Assembly: GCF_001467625.1 (NCBI RefSeq)
Contig: NZ_LNYB01000016.1
Coordinates: 1-64,000, forward strand
Source of the DNA: Legionella feeleii
Lineage (GTDB): Bacteria; Pseudomonadota; Gammaproteobacteria; Legionellales; Legionellaceae
Length of the DNA: 64,000 bases
Direction of reading: 5' to 3'
Part shown: positions 57,403 to 62,451 of the stretch, one piece after another
How the letters are laid out: the number at the start of each line of letters is the position of its first letter
How positions within the stretch are numbered: position 1 is the stretch's first letter
The notes under the pieces: model-generated
What the model was told of the DNA's origin: nothing
Seen by the model: only the letters and a program-made list of their open reading frames with translations
The model's database searches: none
Made by a program: the position numbers and the translations under genes

Positions 57403-58583
57403 TATTCCCCTAGTTTAGTGAGTGCGATTGGCGTATTGAATTCAAAAACCTGTTTTAATTGCCCCAAATCGGTTAAATGAACATAGCCAAGATAATAGGG
57501 AGCTTTATAATTGCTTTTTAGCTCGGAATCAAATGAAAAATCCAAATCATGCAGGCCGGCAGTTAGCCAAGCGGCAGTTTGGGCTGTTTGCATGGGGTGT
57601 ATTTTTCCTGCTTTATCACTGCCATAAAGAACGACTTGCAAGGCATAGCGGCTATCAGTAGCTGCTTCAACGCGCGCAGAAAAAGCTAGCGGGGCAGTTC
57701 CTGCTTTTTTGATTTCCCGAATTGCTGCAGAGGGAATGATATAAGAAAATGCAGAGTGGCCTTGTCGCTTAACGGTTTGCGCGTTAAGTGTTGCAGTCGT
57801 TTTGACTTCCACATACCAATTTCCTCCCTGGCTATCTTTATCGCATAGGAGGGTTGCATGTCCTTCGTAGTTTTCATCTTCTATTTTTTCCAGATTTAAA
57901 GGAATGGTATCCCCATTGGCATTGACTAAAGAGGCATCAATGGCATCGATACGATAGTGTTGCTCTTCATCTTGAAAAGAAATGGTAGCCACTAATTCAT
58001 CCCCATATTGATAGTGGGCTTTGTCAGTCTTGACGTGTAAATAGGTTTTTGCATCCTTATCAAAAACATGGATAAGGTAGCCTTCATTATCTTTTAACGT
58101 GGGTGTAGAACTACTTAAGACAAATTCCCCGGCCCCTAATTCCGGTTTTAATTGTAAGAGAATTAGATCGCGGCCATTAAAGATAGTATTTTGTAGCGCT
58201 TCTTCTTTGGAAAACAAGGCAGAGGCTTCAATCAGGGTCAAATCAACCCCCTTACTATTTTTAATGCGAAAGTCAGGTTTGGCAGGTAATTTTCGATTTA
58301 GAGGCGTAATACGAATGATGGCGCCAGGCGCCTGTGTGTTGATAACAACCCCTTTTTTTAATTCTCCAAAGGTTGTTTTTATCTTGTATTTACGACTTTT
58401 TTGTTGATGCTTTGTTTTATGCCCTAAAGGATTATTGTTGGTTGGCCAACTTGTACTGAGAGTCTCTCGCGGGAGACTTTCACAACGCTGGCAATCATAG
58501 GGTTTGAGTGCTTGTTGCGGGAAGGTCATTGCCTGCGCCTGTAGTGCTCCCAATAGTGTTAAAATAAATAGCTGACCTCTCAT
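57402..58583 (-). CDS. Exported DUF4785-like protein
   Basis: 393 residues from the ATG at 58583, with AAGGAG 7 bases upstream; the longer reading adds 19 residues without a ribosome site. Signal peptide MRGQLFILTLLGALQAQA. The mature part begins with a Cys-x-x-Cys (YDCQRCESLP), and most of the rest is predicted beta: Ig-like segments (HVKTDKAHYQYGDELVATIS, GNWYVEVKT) and a final LDFSFDSELKSNYKAPYYLGYVHL. The arrangement is that of DUF4785, found in Legionella and relatives. It overlaps the lipase gene by 4 bases (ATGA). Function unknown; probably periplasmic or secreted. Confidence 0.78.
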   Translation of the reverse strand: MRGQLFILTLLGALQAQAMTFPQQALKPYDCQRCESLPRETLSTSWPTNNNPLGHKTKHQQKSRKYKIKTTFGELKKGVVINTQAPGAIIRITPLNRKLPAKPDFRIKNSKGVDLTLIEASALFSKEEALQNTIFNGRDLILLQLKPELGAGEFVLSSSTPTLKDNEGYLIHVFDKDAKTYLHVKTDKAHYQYGDELVATISFQDEEQHYRIDAIDASLVNANGDTIPLNLEKIEDENYEGHATLLCDKDSQGGNWYVEVKTTATLNAQTVKRQGHSAFSYIIPSAAIREIKKAGTAPLAFSARVEAATDSRYALQVVLYGSDKAGKIHPMQTAQTAAWLTAGLHDLDFSFDSELKSNYKAPYYLGYVHLTDLGQLKQVFEFNTPIALTKLGE

Positions 58584-59476
58584 TGAATTGCTCCTTGTGC
58601 AAATAGTGCTTTCCGTAGAATATCGTCCAAACCAAAGCATGAATGGCGACTTTGATTATGGCTCAAGGGGGTTTGTTGTTTCGTTTTTTGCCAATCATAA
58701 AACCAGAAAAGACCGGCGGTCATTTGTGAATCACAATCCAAGAAACCATCTGAGCAGTCATCCAGATAATGTTGGGTGATTTTTAATGCCGCATTCAATA
58801 AATATTGATTGCAATAGCTTTCCTTGTCTAACGGTGAGGCATTAACATCGGAGCCGACAATAACATGAAAAGGAATTGGTAAAGAGGGCCGTCCTTTACT
58901 ACCAAATAACATTTCATCATTAAAGAGCGCCATATCACCAACGCGCTGTTGCTTCACGGAATCATTGCGGTAACCGAGTAGCCAGGCTACTTCGTCCTCA
59001 AAGCCGTTGCCATCGATTGCTTCGTCAGCTAATGGTGTACCGCCACTGGATGGTGCAATAGCAATGACATGATGGATTTTTTTAGACAAAAGCATGAAAC
59101 GCGGATCATAGGTGGGATTGGAAAGGATCCAGCGCATGACATTTGCACCATTGGAATGGGTATAAACCGTCAAATGTTTAATTTGTTTTTCATGAACAAA
59201 TTCGAGTAATTGGCTAGCCAGGCATCCTGCCGCTTCTTCATGCCACATGTAATGGCTAAAATCGCAATGAACAATGTAGTGGTTTGCTGGATTGGGAAGC
59301 GCTGAAGCCAGTGAATTGATAAAACTCCTTTTCCAATAACCACCATCTGCATCTTCGCGATGGTCATTGGTGCCATGTACAAAAGCAATACCCATATTCC
59401 TATCTGGCGTTTCCGAGCAAGCTCCAAAAGAAACCAGAAAAAGAAAAAAACAGACAAAAAAACGCGGGAAGTCCAT
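58580..59476 (-). CDS. Exported alpha/beta hydrolase, lipase-like
   Basis: 298 residues. The signal peptide RFFVCFFLFLVSFGAC ends in a Cys, so a lipoprotein is possible although Phe at -3 is not a typical lipobox. The fold begins GIAFVHGTNDHRED near residue 30, with the HG oxyanion motif. The nucleophile is probably Ser in TVYTHSNGANVMRW (His-Ser-Asn-Gly, near residue 110). APSSGGTPLAD follows, as in lipases. A late His or Asp for the triad lies in ITQHYLDD. Substrate not known. It is the first gene of a three-gene operon with the DUF4785-like gene and rmuC. A palindromic site lies upstream. Confidence 0.72.
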   Translation of the reverse strand: MDFPRFFVCFFLFLVSFGACSETPDRNMGIAFVHGTNDHREDADGGYWKRSFINSLASALPNPANHYIVHCDFSHYMWHEEAAGCLASQLLEFVHEKQIKHLTVYTHSNGANVMRWILSNPTYDPRFMLLSKKIHHVIAIAPSSGGTPLADEAIDGNGFEDEVAWLLGYRNDSVKQQRVGDMALFNDEMLFGSKGRPSLPIPFHVIVGSDVNASPLDKESYCNQYLLNAALKITQHYLDDCSDGFLDCDSQMTAGLFWFYDWQKTKQQTPLSHNQSRHSCFGLDDILRKALFAQGAIQ

Positions 59477-59777: not shown

Positions 59778-59823
59778 CAGGGTTTGAGATTGGTTGCAAG
59801 CAGGGTTTGAGATTGGTTGCAAG
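59778..59823. repeat. Two perfect tandem copies of a 23-base repeat
   Basis: The unit CAGGGTTTGAGATTGGTTGC plus AAG occurs at 59778-59800 and 59801-59823 and is followed by a third start (CAGGA). It lies 46 bases beyond the stop of the 47-residue peptide gene. Confidence 0.75.
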
Positions 59824-59868
59824 CAGGACAGGTTGGCATTTAACCCCGATTCACTGCAAAATAAGTTT

Positions 59869-60012
59869 CTATCCCGGGGGGCGCCTATATGGTTTTCTTT
59901 TAGGGATGAGAGGGCGATCTTTAACGCCTCCAGAAACATTTTTTAAATCATCGGGTTTAATTTTGCTGGGTTTTTTTGACTCTTCAATCTGCTTTTTGGT
60001 TATCTTGGACAT
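59869..60012 (-). CDS. 47-residue peptide: double-glycine leader and Pro/Arg-rich core
   Basis: AGGAG (60023-60019) lies 6 bases from the ATG and a TATAAT (60046-60041) lies above it, so this is a well-signalled gene. The product starts MSKITKKQIEESKKPSKIKP, continues to DDLKNVSGG (residues 21-29), which matches the double-glycine leader end of bacteriocin-type peptides (x-Leu-x-x-Val-x-Gly-Gly), and ends in an 18-residue core VKDRPLIPKRKPYRRPPG. The core has 5 Pro and 7 basic residues, no Cys, and looks like a proline-rich antimicrobial peptide. It would need a double-glycine peptidase/exporter for release; none is in the window. The peptide might instead be a regulatory or DNA-binding tail. 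Gene reality is likely; function is inference. Confidence 0.65.
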   Translation of the reverse strand: MSKITKKQIEESKKPSKIKPDDLKNVSGGVKDRPLIPKRKPYRRPPG

Positions 60013-60432
60013 CAGAATCTCCTGAAAAGTAGGTATTTCTATTATAGCAACTGCAGGTTGAATGCCTTGCCCAACAGGGTATTGCGCTCAGAAAATTTTT
60101 GATTTCAGTGCTTTTTAGCAGAACACGAGCAAGACATAACTTTTGTTACTGGTGCAGTGAGTATTGGAAACGCCAGTGGTCTTTAAGCGATTTATTTGCG
60201 TAAAAAGCTAACAAAACCGAATGGTCACGTAGTCAGCATAGGGAAAATATGCCGTTTCATACGAGGGAAACGTTGAAAAAAGGAATACAAATGAAATACC
60301 ATGAGGTCAGCCATCATTGTCTCCTTCGAAGATGATTGTGGTTAGCTGGTAGTTGGGACTACCATCCCTTTGTTTTCATAGCACTCCCTGTGGAAAACCG
60401 CCGCTAGTTAATCTTAAAAGGATAGTTCATGA
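60013..60432. other. 420-base intergenic region before ligA
   Basis: Holds the promoter of the peptide gene on the minus strand and the leader of ligA on the plus strand. The leader contains a possible 14-residue ORF (60291-60335) with AGGA 6 bases upstream, followed by a hairpin TGGTAGT/ACTACCA (60347-60364) and a T-rich tract. I see no longer gene. Confidence 0.4.

Positions 60433-62451
<2,019 letters not shown>

What the first reader, a model, noticed from the sequence alone, without database searches (positions are those of the whole stretch)
59869..60012. Unannotated double-glycine-leader peptide with a proline-rich antimicrobial-like core
A 47-codon gene with strong ribosome site and -10 encodes a leader ending DDLKNVSGG and an 18-residue core with five Pro and seven basic residues (VKDRPLIPKRKPYRRPPG). 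The leader fits bacteriocin-type export peptides; the core resembles proline-rich antimicrobial peptides, better known from animals. In a bacterium that lives in hosts or amoebae it could be a ribosome-targeting bacteriocin, a host-directed peptide or a signal. No exporter lies in the window, so one would have to act in trans. The combination is not one I know as described in Legionella.
Basis: partly seen in the sequence, partly recalled or inferred. Interest (0 to 1): 0.78.

Follow-up and report, generated by a model that had tools for sequence, protein, structure and literature searches.

The report
Exported double-glycine peptide of Legionella
The small gene is real: it belongs to an apparently undescribed family of short peptides scattered through some Legionella genomes, each carrying the same export tag and probably sent out by one shared exporter, but that this one is an antibiotic peptide rests on its composition alone.

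Summary
Confirmed, on the minus strand: 60012..59869 encodes 47 residues, a 29-residue leader ending DDLKNVSGG and an 18-residue core (5 Pro, 7 basic). One relative (G004) has a syntenic ortholog. The leader defines a family: 113 distinct peptides kept from 22 of 143 Legionellaceae genomes, nine of them in this genome, scattered, with diverse cores. All nine have orthologs in G004 under purifying selection (pooled dN/dS 0.23 leader, 0.21 core). An exporter lies on another contig: three genes over all three NCBIfam NHLP-exporter cut-offs, active-site residues kept, family peptides at both edges. Its long form and the peptides co-occur (14 of 14 genomes with it; 10 of 129 without). Of 113 leaders, 111 carry the hydrophobic -4/-7/-12 residues that the LahT protease needs. 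Many upstream regions share a sigma-S-like -10 box (74 of 113; controls 27 of 154).

Export and processing are well-supported inferences; nothing was observed. Antimicrobial action is not supported: the window core has PrAMP composition but no similarity beyond shuffles, 99 of 110 family cores lack even the composition, and no convincing immunity gene was seen. Legionella NHLP-type exporters are in print; my searches found no description of these substrates.

The parts
59869..60012 (-). 47-codon GG-leader peptide precursor gene (start codon 60012-60010, stop 59871-59869)
   Evidence: ortholog in G004, 80% identity, E 1.1e-16
59926..60012 (-). Leader, 29 residues, with I-12, D-8, L-7, V-4, G-2, G-1
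59872..59925 (-). Predicted mature core, 18 residues VKDRPLIPKRKPYRRPPG (cleavage after GG is inferred)
60019..60023 (-). Shine-Dalgarno-like AGGAG
   Evidence: kept in G004
60038..60048 (-). GCTATAATAGA, 8 of 11 to the sigma-S -10 consensus KCTAYRCTTAA; contains TATAAT; the G004 ortholog has GCTATACTCAA, 10 of 11
   Evidence: consensus from PMC5650638
58580..59476 (-). Flanking gene, 298 residues, below-cut-off match to DUF7379 (called hydrolase in the text for short); syntenic flank, not part of the system
60433..62451 (+). Flanking gene ligA (NAD-dependent DNA ligase); syntenic flank, not part of the system

Best explanation
The gene encodes the precursor of a small secreted peptide. Its leader is read by the C39 protease domain of the NHLP-type exporter encoded on contig C85 of the same genome. 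The protease cuts after Gly-29, and the 18-residue cationic, proline-rich, probably unmodified core leaves the cell. It is one of nine scattered precursors sharing that leader and differing in core: one exporter, many payloads. A sigma-S-like -10 box before many family genes suggests induction on entry to stationary (transmissive) phase. For the use of the payload I commit to action outside the producer on another cell, competitor or host, rather than on its own kind (about 0.55), without deciding between the two. Shown by computation: frame, family, selection, exporter genes, kept active-site residues, co-occurrence, leader motif, shared upstream box. Inferred: cleavage, export, lack of modification, sigma-S control, extracellular target.
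For: Ortholog and synteny; purifying selection on leaders and cores, nine pairs pooled; nine family members in the own genome; exporter over the cut-offs of TIGR03794, TIGR03796 and TIGR03797; C39 domain nearest to 6mpz (E 4e-43), the aligned Cys, His and Asp kept (their catalytic roles are recalled); family peptides at both edges of the exporter operon; all 14 genomes with the long second ABC gene have peptides against 10 of 129 without, p=2e-13, within the genus 6 of 6 against 3 of 16, p=0.001; LIVMA at -4, -7 and -12 in 111 of 113 leaders, the requirement reported for LahT (PMC10885120, passages); -10 box at 9 of 11 or better in 74 of 113 against 27 of 154 control genes, p=1e-15.
Against: No transcript, cleavage or export has been observed. 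Genomes that share exporter and peptides are related, and orthologs are counted separately, so the p-values overstate independence. The frame length that defines the long exporter form was chosen after seeing the data; by the curated TIGR03796 cut-off alone, 15 of 21 genomes have peptides, six have none, and 9 of the other 122 have some. My extraction pattern favoured -4 and -7. The window gene's own box is 8 of 11; of the nine own-genome genes only three reach 9, and four have their best match 52-72 nt away, not near the usual 29. Control starts are first ATGs, not all true starts. A second C39 exporter (C81) exists, with another leader type beside it. Absence of a modification enzyme was checked only for 21 exporter neighbours in 5 genomes; a trans-acting one was not searched for.
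Confidence: 0.78

Rival explanations
1. A proline-rich antimicrobial peptide of bacterial origin: the exported core enters competing Gram-negative cells and blocks the 70S ribosome or DnaK.
For: Core 27.8% Pro, net +6, 18 residues: meets the composition part of the definition in PMC7736402. Two other own-genome cores also meet it and contain PRP. Only 8 of 17441 18-residue windows from 39 long frames of local loci (some loci overlap) meet it.
Against: No PRP in the window core; similarity to 13 PrAMPs reached by 1333 of 2000 shuffles, for the most PrAMP-like sibling by 153 of 2000; only 11 of 110 distinct family cores meet the composition; no convincing immunity gene in the intergenic region. 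Antimicrobial activity and intracellular target, essential in that definition, are untested.
Confidence: 0.15
2. A host-directed peptide: released in the transmissive phase, its short proline motifs bind proteins of amoebae or other protists, much as RaxX of Xanthomonas (also a GG-leader peptide cut by a C39 exporter) mimics a plant hormone.
For: Sigma-S-like box; no convincing immunity gene, as expected if the target is absent from the producer; repertoire differs between species (43 of 62 core clusters in a single genome); [RKY]xxPxxP in 15 of 110 cores, reached by 7 of 500 shuffles. RaxX: PMC6637879, passages.
Against: The motif excess is small, one of six patterns tried, and the cores are not independent; 119 of 143 Legionellaceae genomes have no match at E 0.01, so it is not generally needed for life in hosts.
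Confidence: 0.25
3. A community or self-directed peptide: biofilm factor, signal or stationary-phase autolysin, as EbfG1-4 of Synechococcus or the Nap peptides of Neisseria.
For: Precedents of GG peptides with C39 peptidases: EbfG (PMC4997328, abstract and start of text) and Naps, which act in stationary phase without detectable antimicrobial activity (PMC11798529, passages). Purifying selection on cores; one core identical in G000, G004 and G009.
Against: Turnover of the repertoire between species is unusual for a shared signal (inference); I saw no gene that recurs beside the peptides, but did not test this systematically.
Confidence: 0.25
4. Precursor of the ATP-grasp (graspetide) system on contig C81, exported by the C81 transporter.
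For: A second C39 exporter and two ATP-grasp maturase-like genes are in the genome.
Against: The C81 peptides have a different leader (RVFAYTLAK..., RVLAYGLAV...) and sit beside their enzymes; the window leader matches the peptides at the C85 exporter.
Confidence: 0.04
5. A chance ORF in an intergenic region.
For: No peptide was detected in the same slot in the other genomes of the genus in which it could be examined.
Against: Ortholog, leader family, selection, exporter linkage.
Confidence: 0.02

Closest known systems
LB2SS / LB3SS, NHLP-type Legionella exporters (Brown et al. 2020, PMC6959600; section 7 and passages including most of the abstract)
   Same: Two ABC genes at one locus, one with a C39 domain, related to NHLP exporters, in Legionella; plausibly the same system as the C85 exporter (not compared by sequence).
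   Different: What I read names no substrates for them; peptide family, scattered layout and shared upstream box are additional.
Lah system (LahT protease; as many as nine precursors with conserved leaders and very diverse cores; PMC10885120, passages)
   Same: C39 domain nearest in the PDB is 6mpz, a PCAT protease domain (that 6mpz is LahT is recalled); same -4/-7/-12 leader code; one protease with many diverse cores.
   Different: Lah precursors lie in one biosynthetic cluster and are lanthipeptides; here the genes are scattered and no RiPP maturase was recognised among the exporter neighbours examined.
EbfG1-4 / PteB of Synechococcus elongatus (PMC4997328, abstract and start of text)
   Same: Several small GG proteins needing one peptidase-transporter.
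   Different: No sequence comparison made; biofilm role not tested here.
Nap peptides of Neisseria gonorrhoeae (PMC11798529, passages)
   Same: Cationic GG peptides of a host-associated Gram-negative, stationary phase.
   Different: One island with peptidase, export channel and regulator, and an immunity protein; here scattered, no convincing immunity gene.
RaxX / RaxB of Xanthomonas (PMC6637879, passages)
   Same: GG leader removed by a C39 exporter; short mature peptide.
   Different: Sulfated hormone mimic with its own modification gene in the cluster; no sequence relation tested.
Insect and other proline-rich antimicrobial peptides (PMC7736402, PMC11678341, passages)
   Same: Length, proline content, positive charge.
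   Different: No similarity above shuffled sequence.

Membership tests
Double-glycine leader peptide (C39/PCAT substrate) | GG at -2/-1 with hydrophobic -4, -7, -12 | tested here: met
   V, L, I in the window leader; 111 of 113 family leaders; requirement from PMC10885120
Double-glycine leader peptide (C39/PCAT substrate) | C39 ABC exporter with active-site residues kept in the same genome | tested here: met
Double-glycine leader peptide (C39/PCAT substrate) | Cleavage after GG and secretion | not testable with these tools
   bench step referred
NHLP/Nif11 RiPP precursor | Long (over 70 residues) nitrile-hydratase-like or Nif11-like leader | tested here: not met
   29-residue leader, family 18-33; no family for the window peptide up to E 10; no NHLP or Nif11 model among those hit by the 113 members at E 0.01
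NHLP/NHLM bacteriocin exporter (C85 genes) | Scores over the curated cut-offs of TIGR03794, TIGR03796, TIGR03797 | tested here: met
   271 of 156, 916 of 853, 784 of 709 bits
Proline-rich antimicrobial peptide (PMC7736402, Box 1) | At least 25% Pro and net charge at least +1 | tested here: met
   27.8%, +6
Proline-rich antimicrobial peptide (PMC7736402, Box 1) | PRP motif (indicative, not essential) | tested here: not met
   absent from the window core
Proline-rich antimicrobial peptide (PMC7736402, Box 1) | Antimicrobial, with DnaK or 70S ribosome as target | not testable with these tools
   essential in that definition; no claim of membership made
Class II microcin / bacteriocin | Adjacent immunity gene | tested here: inconclusive
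   matching small ORFs of G000 and G004 in the region overlap the peptide gene or the flanking gene, or are fragments of 7-23 residues; the longest free one (window 60225-60317, minus, 30 residues) matches 23 residues at 65%; selection on it was not tested
Graspetide precursor | Adjacent ATP-grasp enzyme | tested here: not met
   neighbours are the DUF7379-like gene and ligA

The most novel reading that the evidence does not exclude
Some Legionella species own a dispersed, stationary-phase peptide secretome: about 8 to 14 unmodified, disordered Arg/Pro-rich peptides in each of the richest genomes, with one leader and one NHLP-type exporter, whose repertoire turns over between species as effector repertoires do and whose targets are host or predator proteins, bound through short linear motifs.
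Probability: 0.2. Interest if true: 0.87.

Novelty: new variant of a known kind. Interest (0 to 1): 0.6.

Why it matters
NHLP-type exporters have been reported in Legionella, but my searches found no description of what they carry. The leader family supplies a concrete substrate list (nine in this genome, 113 distinct peptides in all) and predicts cleavage site and exporter for each, and growth phase for many. If right, organisms studied mainly for type II and type IV secretion also release a changing set of short peptides, and an NHLP-type exporter works here with short leaders and, as far as examined, no modification enzyme beside it.

Tried and rejected
Antimicrobial reading by similarity: not supported. 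Eukaryotic linear motifs: a weak excess for [RKY]xxPxxP (7 of 500 shuffles reach it), borderline for PxxPx[KR] (35 of 500) and dibasic pairs (34 of 500), none for PPxY, PRP and PP. Known family: nothing in Pfam or NCBIfam for the window peptide up to E 10; among the 113 members, 10 NCBIfam and 4 Pfam families hit one or two members each, best E 0.0001, several of them GG-leader or bacteriocin models. Plasmid records: no match to the peptide up to E 1. The order-wide search was the same 143 genomes. The scan of named genomes with the second ABC protein returned 63 loci, 5 of them Legionella; the other 58 I did not analyse. The C81 exporter and LssB (C85, 759 kb) were considered as exporter and set aside on leader type and family.

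Rows dropped before counts: of 123 rows re-detected, one search dropped five (one truncated duplicate, three without a start codon, one missed by my GG pattern); four of the remaining 118 were left out of family counts because their leader is of the C81 type (for G069 judged by leader alone), leaving 114 rows, 22 genomes. One match (G021, C339) was not fetched.

Full report
Observation. The ORF exists exactly at 59869-60012, on the minus strand. It is 47 codons: leader MSKITKKQIEESKKPSKIKPDDLKNVSGG and core VKDRPLIPKRKPYRRPPG. AGGAG lies 6 nt before the start codon, and TATAAT lies within GCTATAATAGA, 25 nt before it. Neighbours are a gene with a below-cut-off DUF7379 match (58580-59476, minus; 'hydrolase' below for short) and ligA (60433, plus). 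No Pfam or NCBIfam family matches the peptide up to E 10.

Relatives. Among 22 genomes of the genus, own included, one other (G004) holds an 80% identical frame, E 1.1e-16, between the same two genes. The weak hits of that search share mainly the leader. A profile of 19 peptides then found matches at E 0.01 in 24 of 143 Legionellaceae genomes, 121 matches in all. From the fetched loci I re-detected 123 rows; 118 passed my start and GG rules. Four of these carry the leader type of an ATP-grasp cluster; 114 rows in 22 genomes, 113 distinct peptides and 110 distinct cores remain. The own genome has nine: three on C21, four on C85, one on C49 and the window's on C16.

Selection. All nine own-genome peptides have a one-to-one ortholog in G004. 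Pooled Nei-Gojobori values are dN 0.039, dS 0.170 for leaders and dN 0.048, dS 0.230 for cores, p=5e-13 for synonymous bias. For the window pair the ORF is 84% identical at DNA level against 60% and 63% in 150-bp flanks; the pairwise DNA alignment has no indel inside the ORF but several outside. The codon-gapped alignment gives p=0.003; the ungapped one gives dN 0.171, dS 0.441, p=0.036, and one antisense frame gives a similar ratio. The frame is thus secured by the family more than by the pair.

The slot. The hydrolase is found beside ligA in 18 of 22 genomes of the genus; the leader model finds a peptide there only in G000 and G004, the next hit having E 1.4. The spacer, measured between tblastn matches, is 176-390 bp in 13 genomes, about 1.0 kb in G000 and G004, and 777, 1164 and 1318 bp in G008, G021 and G003, where no peptide was detected. 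G021, a near relative, keeps stretches at both edges (79% and 89% identity) but the middle is unrelated. In G006, G010, G019 and G020 the hydrolase was not found in the held stretch. The gene is a lineage-restricted accessory gene.

Exporter. A C39 search of the own genome found five matches, four over the family's cut-off. On C85 three adjacent genes pass all three curated NHLP-exporter cut-offs: HlyD-like 271 of 156 bits, peptidase-ABC 916 of 853, second ABC 784 of 709. Family peptides lie at both edges of this operon. The protease domain is nearest to 6mpz among solved structures (E 4e-43), and the Cys of ECG, His of NHFVV and Asp of INDPA are kept (their catalytic roles are recalled). In seven genomes the three genes stay together, and no further gene recurs in all seven. 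Of the neighbours, 21 from five of the seven genomes were searched in Pfam; they are varied housekeeping, envelope and transport genes, none a recognised RiPP maturase, though in G009 an ATP-grasp protein of another type lies some 2 kb away and three neighbours had no match. In G003 the second ABC gene is split into two frames; I only note it.

Co-occurrence. A long second ABC gene (frames of 866-911 residues, over the cut-off) occurs in 14 of 143 genomes; all 14 have peptides. Of the other 129, ten have any (p=2e-13): G003 with ten matches, a full peptidase-ABC gene and the split second gene, and nine genomes with one or two matches each, one of them (G069) of the ATP-grasp leader type. Within the genus the numbers are 6 of 6 and 3 of 16 (p=0.001). 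Against: the length criterion was chosen after seeing the list. With the curated TIGR03796 cut-off alone, 15 of 21 exporter genomes have peptides, six have none, and nine of the other 122 have some (p=6e-10). Relatedness inflates all these values.

Leader code. LahT needs hydrophobic residues at -4, -7 and -12 (PMC10885120, passages). 111 of 113 leaders have LIVMA at all three; shuffled leaders give 0.4 on average. My extraction pattern favoured -4 and -7 but did not look at -12, where all 113 have I, L, V or M. The window leader has V, L, I.

Promoters. The sigma-S -10 consensus KCTAYRCTTAA (PMC5650638, passage) is matched at 9 of 11 or better in 74 of 113 family upstream regions against 27 of 154 control genes (p=1e-15), at a median of 29 nt before ATG; shuffled upstream regions reach it in 8%. 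Orthologs are counted separately and control starts are first ATGs. The window gene has 8 of 11, its ortholog 10 of 11. Of the nine own-genome genes three reach 9 of 11 and four have their best match 52-72 nt away. Upstream of the exporter operon a TATACT-containing site at 9 of 11 occurs in five of seven genomes, at 8 in one, and another site at 10 in one, at varying distances and without a control. The own genome has an RpoS gene over the curated cut-off. A sigma-70 extended -10 is not excluded.

The payload. The window core meets the composition part of a published PrAMP definition (at least 25% Pro, at least +1; PMC7736402, passages): 5 of 18 and +6. But its best alignment score to 13 PrAMPs is reached by 1333 of 2000 shuffles; that of the sibling HHERPIQLPRPPRPHIPRGE by 153 of 2000. 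Only 11 of 110 distinct cores meet the composition. Family cores are 13-43 residues (median 27), rich in Arg (14.0%) and Pro (12.1%), and fall into 62 clusters by single linkage, 43 of them in a single genome. In the window's intergenic region no convincing immunity gene was seen: matching small ORFs overlap the peptide or flanking gene or are short, the longest free one matching over 23 residues. So the antimicrobial reading stays one of several.

Literature. Legionella exporters LB2SS and LB3SS are described as NHLP-type in PMC6959600 (section 7 and passages), without substrates in what I read. Five searches, for Legionella with double-glycine leader peptide, NHLP bacteriocin, GG-motif, RiPP precursors and microcin/C39/GG leader terms, listed no paper that I recognised as describing this peptide family; one search matched 2,269 papers and showed 15, one search matched 19 and showed 15. 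Most subscription papers are not held, so this is weak evidence of novelty. A L. pneumophila graspetide is in print (Gra-7 in PMC9576775, passage) and may relate to the C81 cluster; the search of PMC8939145 found no mention of Legionella, that of PMC8277102 only an efflux pump.

Verdict. The gene, its leader, its family and its likely exporter are well supported; export and cleavage are inference; the biological role is open. I score it as a new variant of a known kind.

Noticed in passing
G000 contig C81, locus L023 6173-13168: A second C39 ABC exporter with an HlyD-like gene, two ATP-grasp maturase-like genes (TIGR04184/04185/04187 below cut-offs) and two peptides with another GG leader: a graspetide-like cluster; a graspetide of L. 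pneumophila is in print (PMC9576775).
   Followed up: partly
window 59780-59825: A 23-bp unit (gggtttgagattggttgcaagca) stands twice in tandem just behind the peptide gene; the alignment with G004 shows one copy there.
   Followed up: no
window 60225-60317, minus strand: A 30-residue ORF in the same intergenic region matches a G004 ORF over 23 residues at 65%; selection on it was not tested.
   Followed up: no
G003, locus L140 6288-8887: The second ABC gene of the exporter is split into two frames although the genome still has ten matches to the peptide profile.
   Followed up: no
L024 5897-8524: The second ABC protein carries about 220 residues before the part that matches TIGR03797; the 14 genomes with this long form all have family peptides.
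   Followed up: no
L041 and L063 (G134 C1 and C2): Two matches with equal score stand on two contigs of one genome, perhaps chromosome and plasmid; one copy was kept after removing duplicates.
   Followed up: no
L204 3568-5107: A HipA_C-domain gene and a helix-turn-helix gene lie near the C49 family peptide.
   Followed up: no
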